This document shows positions 19,543 through 33,295 of a stretch of DNA of 33,295 bases, one piece after another. The notes under the pieces are model-generated. The model was not told the DNA's origin. It worked only from the letters and a program-made list of their open reading frames with translations, and did no database searches. Every line of letters begins with the position of its first letter. The first letter of the stretch is position 1. Both the position numbers and the translations under genes were made by a program. The DNA is from an uncultured Acidimicrobiales bacterium (GTDB taxonomy: Bacteria > Actinomycetota > Acidimicrobiia > Acidimicrobiales > SZUA-35). The DNA is taken from NCBI GenBank assembly GCA_937922045.1, contig CAKZXA010000121.1:1-33295 (forward strand), given 5' to 3'.

Positions 19543-20511
19543 ATGTCCGGCTCGGCTTCCAACGACCCTCGTCCCGATGGACCTGCTGAAGGGTTCGTCG
19601 TGCATATTGTCGATGGAACCTATGAGCTGTTCCGGCAGTACTTCGCCCGCCCCGAACATATCAACGGCGATGGCTTGGATGTGGGAGCAGTGCGTGCCGT
19701 GGTGCGAGGCATGCTGGCCATGCTGGAAGAAGGCGCGACCCATCTCGGGGTCGCCACCGACCAGGTGATCGAGTCGTTTCGCAACGAGCTCTACGCTGGC
19801 TACAAAACGGGCGAGGCTATGGAGCCTGGTATCAAGGCCCAGTTCGCGCCCTTGGAGGATGCCCTGATGGCGGCCGGTATCGCCACCTACCCCATGGTGG
19901 CGCATGAGGCCGACGACGGCATGGCCTCTCTGGCACGGATCGCCGCCGCCGACGGTCGCGTAACCAAGATTTTGATCTGCACGCCCGACAAAGACCTGGC
20001 CCAGTGCGTCACCGACGGTGGCACCGACGATGACGGTCTCTGGCATCCACCCATCATCCAGTTCGACCGTCGGAAGAATGTGATGTACGACGAGGCAGGG
20101 GTGATCGAGAAGTATGGCATTCCGCCAGCGTCGATTCCCGACTGGCTCGGTCTGGTCGGCGACTCAGCCGACGGATTCCCCGGCTTGAAAGGCTGGGGCG
20201 CCAAATCGGCCGCAGCCGTCTTGACCCGCTATGGCCACATCGACCAAATCCCGCTGGCCGCAGGCCAGTGGGACATCACGGTGCGCAGCGGCGCCACGTT
20301 GGCCAAAACACTCGCCGACAATCTTGACGACGCCCTGCTCTTTCGCCGGATCGCCACCCTGGAGCACGACGCCCCGACCGCAGCCTCGATCGATGAGCTT
20401 CGCTGGACGGGCCCGGCCGACAATCTAGCTGAGGCGGCCGCCTTGCTCGACGCCCCCGACCTGCTCGAACGCACAGCCAAGCTGGCCGCGGTTAGAGGTG
20501 ACAAGTCATGA
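19543..20511 (+). CDS. 5'-3' exonuclease (PolI-type FEN/XPG nuclease)
   Basis: 322-residue stand-alone version of the DNA polymerase I 5'-nuclease domain, which removes 5' flaps and RNA primers using metal ions. Visible: HIVDGTYELFRQYF (first metal Asp24), AHEADDGMASLA (acidic cluster), CTPDKDLAQCV, and the helix-three-turn-helix LVGDSADGFPGLKGWGAKSAAAVL. The frame runs back to 19447, but the ATG at 19543 is preferred because of the promoter-like TATAGT 6 nt upstream and because the earlier part overlaps the divergent gene. It overlaps the acetyltransferase gene by 4 nt (ATGA). Confidence 0.92.
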   Translation: MSGSASNDPRPDGPAEGFVVHIVDGTYELFRQYFARPEHINGDGLDVGAVRAVVRGMLAMLEEGATHLGVATDQVIESFRNELYAGYKTGEAMEPGIKAQFAPLEDALMAAGIATYPMVAHEADDGMASLARIAAADGRVTKILICTPDKDLAQCVTDGGTDDDGLWHPPIIQFDRRKNVMYDEAGVIEKYGIPPASIPDWLGLVGDSADGFPGLKGWGAKSAAAVLTRYGHIDQIPLAAGQWDITVRSGATLAKTLADNLDDALLFRRIATLEHDAPTAASIDELRWTGPADNLAEAAALLDAPDLLERTAKLAAVRGDKS

Positions 20512-29529: not shown

Positions 29530-31080
29530 GTGGCTGACCACTCTTTAAGCGAACGCATCGACGACCTGAATCGCAGGAAGACCGAGGCACTCAACGCAGG
29601 GCCCGAGCGCTCGGTGCAACGCCAGCACGACAAGGGCAAGATGCTGGCTCGTGAGCGGCTCGACTACCTGCTCGACGAAGGCTCCTTCAATGAGCTCGAC
29701 ATGCTGGCTCGAACCCGGCACGCCGACGCGGCCGATCGGCCCTACACCGATGGCATCGTCACCGGCTGGGGCACGATCGATGGCCGCAAAGTCTTCATCT
29801 TCTCTCAAGACTTTACGATCATGGGTGGCTCGCTCGGCGAGGTCTTCGCCGAGAAGGTGCACAAGATCATGGATCTGGCCGCCTCGGTGGGTGCACCCTT
29901 CATCGGGTTGAACGACGGCGCAGGTGCCCGAATCCCCGAAGGCGTTGTGAGCCTCGACGGTTACGGCGGCATTTTCTACCGCAACGTGCAGGCCTCCGGT
30001 GTCATTCCTCAGATCAGTGTGATCATGGGTCCGTGCGCTGGCGGTGCCGTCTATAGCCCGGCTATGACCGACTTCATCTTCATGGTGCGTGAGACATCCC
30101 ATATGTTCATAACCGGACCAGACGTGGTCAAGACCGTTACCGGTGAAGAGGTAACGCTCGAAGAGTTGGGTGGCGCCGGCTCACATTCATCGAGATCAGG
30201 TGTGGCCAACTTCGTAGCCGCCGACGAGAAGGCCGTGCTCGACGAAGTTCGCTACCTGTTGGGCTTTCTTCCCTCGAACAACATGGAGGAAGCCCCCCAT
30301 CTCGACAGTGGCGACGATCCAAACCGTCGCTGTGAGGCCCTCAACGATCTCATGCCGGCCAGCCCCAACATGCCCTACGACATGAAGGCCGTAATCAGCG
30401 AGGTCGTCGACGACGGTGACTTCATGGAGTATCACGCGAACTGGGCCCGCTCGATCGTGTGTGGGTTCGCCCGGATGGATGGTCGAGCCGTCGGTATCGT
30501 CGCCAATCAGCCCATGGTGTTGGCTGGCGTGCTCGATATCGAGTCGTCATCAAAGGCCGCTCGATTCGTTCGCACCTGCGATGCCTTCAACCTGCCCATT
30601 CTGACCTTCGTCGACGTGCCGGGCTTCCTGCCCGGTGTCGACCAGGAGTATGGCGGCATTATCCGGCATGGGGCCAAGCTCCTCTACTCCTACTGCGAAG
30701 CCACCGTGCCCCGCATCCAGATCATCACTCGCAAGGCTTACGGTGGCGCCTACGTGGTGATGGACTCGAAGTCGATTGGCTCGGACCTGTCGTTCGCATG
30801 GCCGTCAGCCGAACTGGCCGTGATGGGCCCTGAGGGTGCGGCCGAAATCGTGCACCGGCGCGAGATCCAGTCGGCGGCTGATCCCGAGGCCCGCCGCAAC
30901 GAGCTGGTCGAGGACTACAAGGAGCAATTCGCCAATCCGTGGATAGCGGCCGAACGAGGCTACATCGATGATGTAATCGACCCGGCCGAGACCCGCATCA
31001 AGATCATCGCCGGGTTGAATATGTTGGCCTCGAAACGAGAAGAGCTTCCTCAGCGCAAGCACGGCAACGTGCCGCTTTAG
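29530..31080 (+). CDS. Acyl-CoA carboxylase beta (carboxyltransferase) subunit, propionyl-CoA carboxylase-like
   Basis: 516 residues with N- and C-terminal crotonase-fold carboxyltransferase halves. Carboxybiotin and acyl-CoA sites are seen in IGLNDGAGARIPEGV (125-139), GPCAGGAVYSPAMTDFIFMV (167-186) and, in the second half, FVDVPGFLPGVDQE and RKAYGGAYVVMDSK (401-414). It ends RKHGNVPL like PccB proteins. It transfers CO2 from biotin to acyl-CoA (propionyl-CoA to methylmalonyl-CoA, or acetyl-CoA to malonyl-CoA). Residue 409 is Val where classical propionyl enzymes have Asp, a known specificity position. The biotin-carrying alpha subunit is not in the window. A small epsilon-like gene follows after 20 nt. 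The start is GTG. Confidence 0.94.
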   Translation: MADHSLSERIDDLNRRKTEALNAGPERSVQRQHDKGKMLARERLDYLLDEGSFNELDMLARTRHADAADRPYTDGIVTGWGTIDGRKVFIFSQDFTIMGGSLGEVFAEKVHKIMDLAASVGAPFIGLNDGAGARIPEGVVSLDGYGGIFYRNVQASGVIPQISVIMGPCAGGAVYSPAMTDFIFMVRETSHMFITGPDVVKTVTGEEVTLEELGGAGSHSSRSGVANFVAADEKAVLDEVRYLLGFLPSNNMEEAPHLDSGDDPNRRCEALNDLMPASPNMPYDMKAVISEVVDDGDFMEYHANWARSIVCGFARMDGRAVGIVANQPMVLAGVLDIESSSKAARFVRTCDAFNLPILTFVDVPGFLPGVDQEYGGIIRHGAKLLYSYCEATVPRIQIITRKAYGGAYVVMDSKSIGSDLSFAWPSAELAVMGPEGAAEIVHRREIQSAADPEARRNELVEDYKEQFANPWIAAERGYIDDVIDPAETRIKIIAGLNMLASKREELPQRKHGNVPL

Positions 31081-31100
31081 GCGTGAGAGGGTCTGAACCA

Positions 31101-31280
31101 ATGGATATCACACCAACCCCTACCGACGAGGAGGCGGCCGCTATCGTCGCCGCCTTGGCCATGACAATGCTCCGACCCGGCATGGCCGAGTCGGAGCAGG
31201 TGTCTTCACGTTGGCGGTTCAGTGGGCGGTGGTGGCATCGCGGCCACCAGCTTCAGCGCAAGCGTCCATCGGTTCGCTGA
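31101..31280 (+). CDS. Acyl-CoA carboxylase epsilon-like subunit
   Basis: 59 residues from the ATG at 31101 (the frame is also open from 31083). The helical core TPTDEEAAAIVAALAMTML, then SRWRFSGRWW and a basic tail, fits the tiny epsilon subunits that stabilise actinobacterial acyl-CoA carboxylases. It is placed directly behind the beta subunit gene, where such subunits normally lie. The assignment rests on pattern plus position. Confidence 0.72.
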   Translation: MDITPTPTDEEAAAIVAALAMTMLRPGMAESEQVSSRWRFSGRWWHRGHQLQRKRPSVR

Positions 31281-31291
31281 CGCTACCCACC

Positions 31292-31322
31292 GGCCGTCAT
31301 TTACCCGCCGTTGTGACGGGCC
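31292..31322. terminator. Possible bidirectional terminator
   Basis: GGCCGTCA (31292-31299) can pair with TGACGG-g-CC (31314-31322) around a 14-nt loop with one bulged base. It lies in the 49-nt gap between the convergent epsilon-subunit and beta-propeller genes. Confidence 0.35.
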
Positions 31323-31329
31323 CTAGCTC

Positions 31330-32334
31330 CTAGCGGATCGAGGCGAGCCCGAACGGGTTCGCGCCGACGGTTACGAGTTGTGTCTCCCCGGTATCAGCAT
31401 CGATGACCGAAACAACATTGTTCGGTCCCGAGTGGGTGGCGAAGATTGTGCCCGAGGCGGTGACGGTGACGTTGTGAGCGACGGCAGCGTCGGTGCTGAC
31501 AGGATCGGCTGTGGTGTCCAGCGATCGGTTGAGCTGCCAGATGGCGTCAACGCCACCGCCGGCGATGTTGGTGACAACAACATTGTTGTTCCGGGTGACG
31601 AAGATGCCGTGGGCGGTAGGCACGCTGGTCTCGCCGACTTTGCGCAGGGTGGCCGGTACGTAGCTAGAGACCGAGTTGGCCTCCTGGGAAGCGACGTAGA
31701 GGCGTCCGCCCTGTACGAACAGGTGAGGATCGCCGCCGGTCTCAATCTGGCCGGTGAGTTCGAAGGTGCGGGTCGAGTAGCGCAACACAACGCCGTAGCC
31801 GTCGAGGCCAACGAGGCTGACGAAGGCGTTGTTGCCCTTAACGAACACATCGTGGGTTATGCCACCGGCCTCGATCAGTTCGGCTGGAATCGTGATCGTG
31901 GTGGTCGCCTCTGCCGTCTTGGTGTCGACGATGGTGACCGTGCTGGCCGCCGTGCCGACGACCCAGAGCTGGTCGCGTGCTGGGTCTAGCCATTGGTGGA
32001 AGACACCGTCAGCGACATCGACGGTGGCTACGACCTCGAAGGTTTCATCATCGAGCGCAACGACAGTGCTGGAGGCTCGATCGCCGATCCAGACCACATC
32101 GTTGTCGGGGTCGTGGTTGACATACATCGGCTCGGCATCGCCGGGTAGGTCGTAGTTGGTGACGCTCAGGTCGGTGGTATCGATGACGGAAACATCGCCC
32201 GACCCCCGGTTGGCGACGACGACGGCTGACGAATCAGCGCTCGACGCCGAAGCTGAGACCGACAGGCCGGCCACCACCATAAGAATGGTTGCTACAACGA
32301 CGACAACGCGACGTGGATTGATAGATCGAAACAC
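31330..32334 (-). CDS. Secreted YVTN/YncE-like beta-propeller protein
   Basis: 334 residues. The signal peptide (basic FRSINPRR, hydrophobic VVVVVATILMVVAGLSV, cleavage near ASASS at about 30) is followed by six or so ~40-residue blades. Recurrent pieces include GDVSVIDTTDLSV, STVVALDDETFEVV, STVTIVDTKTAEAT, GVVLRYSTRTFEL and NNVVSVIDADTGET. This is the seven-bladed propeller pattern of YVTN/NHL-type proteins: extracellular binding or scaffold, sometimes lyase-related; function unknown. The GTG at 32334 is chosen over the longer frame (to 32475) because GGAG stands 5 nt upstream and it opens the signal peptide. An IS110 element lies upstream on the opposite strand. Confidence 0.85.
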   Translation of the reverse strand: MFRSINPRRVVVVVATILMVVAGLSVSASASSADSSAVVVANRGSGDVSVIDTTDLSVTNYDLPGDAEPMYVNHDPDNDVVWIGDRASSTVVALDDETFEVVATVDVADGVFHQWLDPARDQLWVVGTAASTVTIVDTKTAEATTTITIPAELIEAGGITHDVFVKGNNAFVSLVGLDGYGVVLRYSTRTFELTGQIETGGDPHLFVQGGRLYVASQEANSVSSYVPATLRKVGETSVPTAHGIFVTRNNNVVVTNIAGGGVDAIWQLNRSLDTTADPVSTDAAVAHNVTVTASGTIFATHSGPNNVVSVIDADTGETQLVTVGANPFGLASIR

Positions 32335-32589
32335 AAGTTCTCCAGTGATGAACTTGGATGGTGGTGAGTGTTGGCTCAGGTCTGACCCACAAGTTTCCCG
32401 ACCACCCGAATGGGTGTGTCTTTCGTAGGACCTGTCGACCTGGCTGATGCTCACCACATCAACCATCGAACCCATTGCCGGGTCCGGCCTCCAGCGTGAC
32501 CTAATAGGAGCCCGAGCTCAAATGCCTCATCACTGGACTGTCCGCCACTGGCTGGTTCCGGCAACGTCACTACAAGGAGAACAAAGAAG
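32335..32589. other. Noncoding region: beta-propeller promoter plus IS110 left end
   Basis: 255 nt. I see small hairpins: CACCC-gaat-GGGTG (32403-32416), TGATG-ctcacca-CATCA (32445-32461), and a larger one with CGGG (32479-32482) and CTCC (32489-32492) pairing with GGAG (32507-32510) and CCCG (32511-32514) around a 14-nt loop. AAGGAG (32574-32579) serves the transposase. The element's exact left boundary cannot be placed; IS110 elements have no long terminal inverted repeats. Confidence 0.5.
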
Positions 32590-33295
32590 ATGGAACCAGT
32601 CGCTGTTGTTGGTGGCGTGGACACCCACGCCGCTACCCACCACGCCGCTGTTGTCGATGTCACCGGAAAACTGCTCGACACACGCTCGTTCATTGCCACC
32701 CAAGCGGGCTACAGGTCACTGTTGGATTGGGCATCATCATTTGGCCCGCTGCTACGGGTCGGGGTTGAGGGAACCGGCACCTACGGAGCCGGGCTCACAC
32801 GCCACCTCAGCCAAGCCCATATCGACGTGGTTGAGGTCCCGCGACCAGACCGCCAACTCAGGCGAGCACACGGCAAATCAGACCCAATCGATGCAGTCGC
32901 TGCAGCGCGCCGCGCTCTGGCCTGTGACGGCACGGTCGTCCCGAAGAAACAAGATGGACCCGTTGAAGCCATCCGAGCGCTACGAACTGCCCGCCTTGGA
33001 GCTATCAAGGCTAAGACTGCTGCAACGAACACGCTGCGATCCATGATCATCACCGCTCCAGAACCACTACGAGCCCAACTCCCAGCGACTGGCCTACCGA
33101 ACAAACTCATCAAAGCGTGCGCCCGACTACGACCCGATCCTGAACGTCTCAACGAACCAACCCAAGCCGCTAAAGCAGCGCTACGCAGCATCGCCCACCG
33201 AGCCCAACACCTCGTCGACGAGATCAAAAAGCTCGACCATCTGATTGGTCGATTGCTCGCGGTCACCGCACCAACGACCTTGGCCGTGTTCGCTA
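32440..33295 (+). mobile_element. IS110-family insertion sequence, left part (runs off window)
   Basis: The transposase is of the IS110 DEDD type, and the ~150 nt before it is structured noncoding DNA of the kind that encodes the bridge RNA in IS110-group elements such as IS621. The left boundary given is approximate. Codons in this part often end in A (CTA, CGA, CCA), unlike the host genes, supporting a recent arrival. Confidence 0.65.
32590..33295 (+). CDS. IS110-family transposase (recombinase), C-terminus beyond the window
   Basis: 235 codons are present and no stop is reached; family members are usually 320-420 residues, so the serine-containing C-terminal domain is outside. The N-terminal RuvC-like DEDD catalytic set is visible: GGVDTHAATHHAAV (first Asp, residue 11), VEGTGTYG (Glu, about 60), and KSDPIDAVAAARRAL (two Asp, about 98-101). 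The family's recombinases cut and paste circular intermediates, guided by an element-encoded bridge RNA that pairs with target and donor DNA. AAGGAG lies 10 nt before the ATG. Confidence 0.92.
   Translation, partial: MEPVAVVGGVDTHAATHHAAVVDVTGKLLDTRSFIATQAGYRSLLDWASSFGPLLRVGVEGTGTYGAGLTRHLSQAHIDVVEVPRPDRQLRRAHGKSDPIDAVAAARRALACDGTVVPKKQDGPVEAIRALRTARLGAIKAKTAATNTLRSMIITAPEPLRAQLPATGLPNKLIKACARLRPDPERLNEPTQAAKAALRSIAHRAQHLVDEIKKLDHLIGRLLAVTAPTTLAVFA

What the first reader, a model, noticed from the sequence alone, without database searches (positions are those of the whole stretch)
32440..33295. IS110 element with a probable unannotated bridge RNA
An IS110-group transposase with intact DEDD residues is preceded by ~150 nt of noncoding DNA that can form a stem with internal loop (32479-32514, 14-nt loop) plus smaller hairpins. 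In IS110-group elements the left noncoding end encodes the programmable bridge RNA. Unpaired loop bases would be expected to match the element's flanks. The element also abuts the control region of the secreted propeller gene.
Basis: partly seen in the sequence, partly recalled or inferred. Interest (0 to 1): 0.5.

Follow-up and report, generated by a model that had tools for sequence, protein, structure and literature searches.

The report
IS110 element with bridge RNA guides
At the window's right edge lies a jumping gene of the IS110 family that carries, just before its recombinase gene, a predicted folded guide RNA whose loops match both the DNA sites it has jumped into and its own ends; this is a clear new example of a recently discovered system rather than a new one.

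Summary
The left end is at 32341-32343, not 32440, and the leader is 249 nt. At least three copies share this end. The window stops inside the recombinase gene; contig C21 carries the rest (352 aa, about 1.32 kb).

The leader holds two hairpins. Loops of the first (32361-32457) match the target flanks; loops of the second (32477-32562) match the element's right end (9 nt) and left end (11 of 11). A covariance model from 12 relatives, window left out, finds only 32484-32555 (E 1.9e-11). Across 12 elements left target guides match their own flanks better than swapped ones (64 of 84 against 30; 0 of 200,000).

So it is a new member of a known kind. In passing, other IS110-type elements were found inserted inside the donor-guide segment of related bridge RNA genes; two paper searches listed no report of it.

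The parts
32341..32342 (+). Probable core dinucleotide TC at the left junction; left end proper starts CAGTGATG at 32343
   Evidence: Three copies converge here; TC also stands at the three right junctions found. Exact core length not settled.
32341..32589 (+). Left noncoding end (leader) holding the predicted bridge RNA gene, 249 nt
32361..32457 (+). Target-binding hairpin: long stem, 13 + 13 nt internal loop, inner hairpin 32400-32420
   Evidence: Fold z -4.63 for 32359-32466; model R2, built without the window, hits 32370-32453, E 3.7e-6; covariation
32388..32398 (+). Left target guide CACAAGTTTCC (in loop 32387-32399)
   Evidence: Exact shared runs with the three left flanks: CACAAGTT (window), AGTTTCC (C99), GTTTCC (C118); tracks the flank across 12 elements
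32424..32431 (+). Right target guide CGTAGGAC (in loop 32421-32433)
   Evidence: Reverse complement against the three right flanks over 10 positions: 7 (C4), 7 (C126), 5 (C21)
32477..32562 (+). Donor-binding hairpin
   Evidence: Model R1 built from 12 relatives without the window: only hit in the window at E up to 10 is 32484-32555, 47.8 bits, E 1.9e-11; fold z -1.81; covariation
32504..32512 (+). Left donor guide ATAGGAGCC
   Evidence: Exact 9-nt match to the right end (C21 copy) of the element; next-best run 7 nt
32527..32537 (+). Right donor guide TCATCACTGGA
   Evidence: Reverse complement identical to the left end TCCAGTGATGA, 11 of 11; 0 of 1000 mononucleotide shuffles
32590..33295 (+). 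IS110-group recombinase, first 235 of 352 codons; continues in contig C21 to its stop at C21:494
   Evidence: Pfam PF01548 here, PF02371 on the C21 part; C21 part matches IS621 (8wt6) and ISCro4 (9t56) recombinases
31330..32334 (-). Neighbour: beta-propeller-like gene; if its start is the GTG at 32332-32334, the element lies 6 bp upstream of it
   Evidence: the mechanical ORF runs on to an ATG at 32475 inside the element; start and secretion are my reading; weak Pfam match Cytochrom_D1 below its cut-off; close homologues in 5 same-genus genomes

Best explanation
Its left end encodes a bridge RNA with a target-binding hairpin followed by a donor-binding hairpin. The two loops of the first hairpin pair with the two sides of the target; those of the second pair with the element's own right and left ends as joined in the excised circle. 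The DEDD/serine recombinase would then exchange the strands around a short core (probably TC), inserting the circle. Shown here: ends, predicted hairpins, guides, their match to target and donor, covariation across relatives. Inferred from the published IS621 work: transcription from the circle junction, recombinase binding, strand exchange.
For: Three left and three right ends define the element. Right donor guide 11 of 11 and left donor guide 9 nt exact. Left target guide shares runs of 6-8 nt with each of three left flanks. Left target guide against own flank in 12 elements: 64 of 84, permuted 30.2 +/- 5.3, 0 of 200,000; right donor guide 110 of 132, permuted 88.3 +/- 3.5, 0 of 200,000. Right target guide in 9 elements: 55.5 of 90, permuted 40.95 +/- 3.8, 48 of 200,000. 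Target-hairpin closing helix 94.9% paired, 22 cells changed on both sides against 7.4 +/- 2.3 (0 of 500), slid controls 24.8-45.3%. Models without the window find it. Uninterrupted homologues of site 1 and of the right side of site 2.
Against: No RNA data. In the window copy the left target guide fits only with a 1-nt offset (2 of 7 in strict register). At site 1 the joined flanks are 1 bp shorter than four of four uninterrupted homologues, so the core is not exactly defined. In single-copy relatives the left end was placed from the right donor guide alone, so bases called flank could partly belong to the element; in N. jabiensis six copies share much of them. The left-end placement was not individually significant for L042 and L046 (0.24 and 0.14 of shuffles). 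The donor hairpin is unremarkable by energy alone (z -1.81), and two of its five covariation measures do not exceed shuffles clearly (97 and 123 of 500). No Rfam family matches the leader convincingly. The full element spans two contigs, so its continuity is inferred from a 141-base overlap.
Confidence: 0.95

Rival explanations
1. IS1111-type layout: the guide RNA lies downstream of the recombinase gene and the leader is only a promoter and untranslated region.
For: [quoted passage not shown]
Against: After the stop codon at C21:494 only about 16 nt remain to the right end; all four guides are found in the leader.
Confidence: 0.01
2. The leader structure is a regulatory RNA (attenuator or translation control) for the recombinase, and the matches to the ends are leftovers of recombination or chance.
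For: Structured leaders can regulate genes (general knowledge); the right donor guide is an inverted copy of the left end.
Against: Target-guide loops match flanks that differ between the three copies of this element and track the flanks across relatives; the guides sit at corresponding places of the hairpins in the 13 elements compared.
Confidence: 0.02
3. A decayed, inactive copy in which the bridge RNA no longer matters.
For: The copy in the window differs by one base in target register; the contig is broken inside the gene.
Against: Leader identical over 138 bp in three copies; reading frame open across both contigs; 11 of 11 donor match.
Confidence: 0.05

Closest known systems
IS621 bridge recombination system (IS110 group; PMC11208160: abstract, passages and section 12 read)
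   Same: Leader upstream of the recombinase; target-binding loop first, donor-binding loop second; left guide before right guide in each loop; DEDD plus serine-domain recombinase; short core
   Different: Core apparently TC, not CT; recombinase only distantly related in sequence (C-terminal part best PDB match 8wt6, E 1.6e-4; no match for the window part at E 0.1); different target and donor
Actinobacterial IS110-group elements in Nonomuraea jabiensis (L033) and Streptomyces (L032, L039)
   Same: 50-53% identical recombinase over the window part, same two hairpins, similar left ends (CAGTGATG or CAGTGAGG); L033 also has the right end ATAGGAGC; right ends of L032 and L039 were not found
   Different: Different targets (for example CATCAACTGA) with correspondingly different guides; core region GAC instead of TCC
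seekRNA of ISEc21 (IS110 type; PMC11187229: passages including part of the abstract, and section 13 read)
   Same: RNA from the upstream noncoding region carries short matches to both target strands
   Different: Different element and target; ISEc21 inserts into IS3-family transposase genes

Membership tests
IS110 family, IS110 group | DEDD (RuvC-like) domain PF01548 and serine Tnp domain PF02371 in one protein | tested here: met
   PF01548 E 2.3e-22 on the window part, PF02371 E 2.2e-17 on the C21 part; one frame across the 141-base contig overlap
IS110 family, IS110 group | Long left noncoding end, short right end | tested here: met
   249 nt against about 16 nt
IS110 family, IS110 group | Insertion without long target duplication, only a short core | tested here: met
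   TC at three left and three right junctions; no long duplication at site 1, the only site with uninterrupted homologues on both sides; exact core length open
Bridge RNA | Two hairpins with internal loops, conserved and covarying | tested here: met
   support for the donor hairpin weaker by energy and by two covariation measures
Bridge RNA | First loop pairs with both sides of the target | tested here: met
   1-nt offset in the window copy
Bridge RNA | Second loop pairs with the element's own ends | tested here: met
Bridge RNA | Core dinucleotide included in all four pairings | tested here: inconclusive
   TC fits the left target, right target and right donor guides; not clear for the left donor guide
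Bridge RNA | RNA is transcribed, binds the recombinase and is needed for recombination | not testable with these tools
   Needs experiment
IS1111 group | Guide RNA downstream of the recombinase gene in a long right end | tested here: not met
   Right end about 16 nt

The most novel reading that the evidence does not exclude
The left donor guide of this bridge RNA family is itself a target for other RNA-guided elements. Some members of a second IS110-type clade have inserted, in reverse orientation, into the segment GTGACCT(C/G)ATAGGAGCC of other elements' bridge RNA genes, splitting the donor-binding loop; their own leaders carry guides resembling that segment. The window's element carries a near-identical site (GTGACCTAATAGGAGCC, 32496-32512). 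If true, guide RNA genes are attacked by guide RNA systems, a form of hyperparasitism or competition between related elements. Evidence. It concerns relatives, not the window itself.
Probability: 0.7. Interest if true: 0.6.

Novelty: new member of a known kind. Interest (0 to 1): 0.38.

Why it matters
The element adds a well-supported predicted bridge RNA with all four guides assigned from sequence, in a recombinase branch only distantly similar to IS621, with a core that appears to be TC and relatives whose core region is mostly GAC. Such orthologues are useful for learning the rules of programmability. The side finding, elements inserted in the donor guide of other bridge RNA genes, would make competition between RNA-guided mobile elements directly testable.

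Tried and rejected
Rfam scan of 31000-33295 at E up to 5: two matches, a miRNA family (E 0.062, 23.8 bits against a cut-off of 80) and Mcr7 (E 2.5), both taken as chance. MAFFT plus RNAalifold on 14 donor hairpins left the outer arms unaligned: 9 pairs, 2 with a change on both sides; replaced by alignments anchored on the conserved TGAC/GTC closure. The 3' partner of the target hairpin was chosen by me from the folds, so pair counts there lean towards the structure. The first attempt to find the right donor guides by pattern picked the wrong motif; corrected.

Element selection: 48 related loci; left donor guide motif in 23 of 48, 18 distinct; L072, L074, L076 (no right-donor-guide end found) and L057 (too little upstream sequence) not used; 14 plus the window analysed; L043, L048, L050 dropped before the 12-element tests because the target-guide motif was missing (L043, L050) or the left end was unclear (L048, L050). 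The motif used to read the left target guide constrained its last three letters, so core agreement there is partly built in. The right-target test used the 9 elements with a right flank found. Arm counts used 13 elements, L048 included.

Negative: the IS110-type genes on C42 and C46 of the same genome (L029, L030) gave no match to either hairpin model at E up to 1.

Pairing of flanks: site 1 (C118 with C21) is supported by uninterrupted homologues; which of C4 and C126 belongs to the window copy stays open. Homologues of the propeller gene did not settle it, and the joined site 3 had no match in 40 relatives. A one-base variation beside the core in the right end (C in C21, G in C4 and C126) is unexplained. 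Second clade: protein search of viral contigs found no relative.

Full report
What is there. The window is contig C121 of an unnamed 4.88-Mb genome in 128 contigs. Its last 955 bases hold the left part of an insertion sequence. Contigs C118 and C99 end in the same 138 bases (window 32341-32478, 100%) with different flanks, which places the left end at 32341-32343. The window's last 141 bases open contig C21, which continues the reading frame to its stop at C21:494. Contigs C4 and C126 share C21:370-510 at 99% and then diverge, which places the right end near C21:510. The element is about 1324 bp with a 352-residue recombinase. Pfam finds DEDD_Tnp_IS110 in the window part and Transposase_20 in the C21 part. 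The C21 part matches the solved IS621 and ISCro4 recombinases (E 1.6e-4 and 3.6e-4); the window part matched no solved chain at E up to 0.1.

Layout. The leader from the left end to the ATG at 32590 is 249 nt, and about 16 nt follow the stop codon. This is the IS110-group layout. The published description that long left ends mark the IS110 group and long right ends the IS1111 group was read in PMC11208160 (section 12) and in passages of PMC11187229, which also notes exceptions.

Structure. The leader folds into two hairpins. The target-type hairpin 32361-32457 has a 13 + 13 nt internal loop and an inner hairpin; the stretch 32359-32466 folds with z -4.63 (0 of 200 shuffles as good). The donor-type hairpin 32477-32562 is weaker by energy alone (z -1.81; 9 of 200). 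Fourteen stretches from relatives gave z between -0.99 and -6.88.

Covariation. I aligned the hairpin arms of 13 elements, the window included, on their conserved TGAC/GTC closure. In the target hairpin 94.9% of 117 cells pair (shuffled 73.2 +/- 3.0, 0 of 500), 22 cells change on both sides (shuffles 7.4 +/- 2.3, 0 of 500), 6 of 9 pairs have such a change (15 of 500 shuffles reach that), and slid versions pair in 24.8-45.3%. In the donor hairpin 79.3% of 169 cells pair (0 of 500), 32 cells change on both sides (shuffles 16.5 +/- 2.9, 0 of 500), and slid versions pair in 31.5-39.1%; but the number of pairs with such a change (9; 97 of 500 shuffles) and of further pair types (20; 123 of 500) do not stand out. 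On an 11-relative alignment without the window the target hairpin gave 93.5% of 154 cells. Two covariance models were built without the window. R1 (donor hairpin, 12 relatives) finds one place in the 33,295 bases at E up to 10: 32484-32555, E 1.9e-11. R2 (target hairpin, 11 relatives) finds 32370-32453 at E 3.7e-6, with one weak second match at 19984-20052, E 0.24. E-values of these models are rough.

Guides. The right donor guide TCATCACTGGA is the exact reverse complement of the left end TCCAGTGATGA (11 of 11; 0 of 1000 mononucleotide shuffles); the next-best inverted run is 8 nt and belongs to the stem of the target hairpin. The left donor guide ATAGGAGCC equals the right end in the C21 copy; the next-best run is 7 nt. 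The left target guide CACAAGTTTCC shares CACAAGTT with the window flank, AGTTTCC with C99 and GTTTCC with C118. The right target guide predicts GTCCTACGAA; over 10 positions it matches the right flanks of C4 at 7, C126 at 7 and C21 at 5.

Guides track their DNA. Locating each relative's left end from its right donor guide alone, I then compared the left target guide with the bases just outside that end. Over 12 elements own matches were 64 of 84; permuted pairs gave 30.2 +/- 5.3 and none of 200,000 reached 64. Right donor guide against left end: 110 of 132, permuted 88.3 +/- 3.5, 0 of 200,000; here the left end was chosen as the best match, which favours own pairs. Right target guide against right flank over 9 elements: 55.5 of 90, permuted 40.95 +/- 3.8, 48 of 200,000. 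In strict register the window copy itself scores only 2 of 7 for the left target guide because its flank carries one extra base. In Nonomuraea jabiensis six copies (L033-L037, L054) have flanks of the form (A/G/C)TC(A/T)ACTGA, and the guide reads CATCAACTGA; since six copies share so much, part of this could belong to the element. The same caution holds for the single-copy relatives, not for the window's element, whose three flanks differ.

Insertion sites. Site 1 (C118 and C21) interrupts a gene that I read as VOC-type (no domain search made). Uninterrupted homologues in three relatives (G016, G018, G024) and a paralogue on C59 read CATGTTGCC(C/T)TC. The right flank of site 2 (C4) lies in a transposase gene (HTH_Tnp_1, E 1.4e-15; I read it as IS3 OrfA) whose homologue in G008 reads ACCAATTTCCCTTCG. 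These sites fit the guide ACAAGTTTCCC with a few mismatches. At site 1 the joined flanks are one base shorter than the four homologues, and at site 2 one base shorter than the G008 homologue, so the exact core remains open; TC is the simplest choice because it stands at the three left and three right junctions. In the window the element sits 6 bp upstream of the GTG that I take as the start codon of the propeller gene, in what looks like its ribosome-binding site; close homologues of that gene (55-69% identical) occur in five same-genus genomes.

Verdict. An ordinary but unusually clear new member of the IS110 bridge RNA elements. How it works is inferred from IS621 (PMC11208160: abstract, passages and section 12 read); transcription, recombinase binding and recombination were not tested here.

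Side finding. In L047, L055 and L038 the target hairpin lies far upstream of the recombinase gene because a second IS110-type element sits inside the donor-binding loop, within GTGACCT(C/G)ATAGGAGCC, in reverse orientation. A pattern search for the second element's end in 396 genomes gave 48 genomes with at most one mismatch, probably chance for the most part since the reversed control pattern also matched often; the three exact matches (two in G336, one in G105) lie at such a site, the G105 one at the variant GTGGCTTGATAG. One G336 match is the L038 locus itself; the other lies in a different host copy. For G105 (L133) only one junction is in the contig, and neither hairpin model matched there, so its host is identified by eye. 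A Streptomyces atratus plasmid (L134) shows both halves, and the models find host hairpins, in whole or part, beside the element in L131, L132 and L134.

Other members of this clade use other sites (for example L135, L138, L144, L153). In 8 members the leader matches the own left flank in 68 of 80 positions (permuted 58.4 +/- 3.2, 170 of 100,000) and the own right flank in 67 of 80 (permuted 54.7 +/- 3.3, 93 of 100,000). Against this: L047 and L055 are near duplicates, and their leaders fit six of the seven other flanks as well as their own on the left side (8 of 10), so for them alone the left match says little; the clearest donor-guide case is L131 (10 of 10 left, 8 of 10 right). Left out of that test: L145 (both ends not found), L132 (=L147, nested insertions), L154 (=L131), twelve loci (L142, L143, L146, L148-L152, L155-L158), and five of eight fetched plasmid loci (L136, L137, L139-L141); the plasmid search itself had 39 records with a match. 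Paper searches (listings only: 12 and 13 papers) and passages of PMC11208160 showed no report of this.

Noticed in passing
L047:1093-2353, L055, L038 (=L132), L131, L134; one junction in L133: A second IS110-type element is inserted inside the left donor guide of other elements' bridge RNA genes, in reverse orientation, with its own leader guides resembling that site.
   Followed up: partly
L028 (own genome C76) 1433-1506 and 1514-1595; L031 (G020) 2050-2131 and 2135-2201: Both hairpin models match next to each other at another IS110-type element of the same genome (upstream of its recombinase gene, C76:39164) and in a same-family genome, where the position relative to a recombinase gene was not checked.
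   Followed up: no
right ends of relatives, for example L033, L038, L045, L046, L049, L059: Right ends carry TTGAC a few bases before ATAGGAGC, which could act as a -35 box completed across the circle junction; in the window's element it reads TTGATC.
   Followed up: no
window 32332-32343: The insertion falls within the probable ribosome-binding site of the propeller gene, and the element's end leaves a GGAG sequence upstream of the GTG that I take as its start codon.
   Followed up: no
L144 and L153: Two related elements in two genomes of one genus differ in one base of the right target guide (TGTTCTAGGC, TGTTCTCGGC) and their right flanks differ in the matching base (GCCTAGAACA, GCCGAGAACC).
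   Followed up: no
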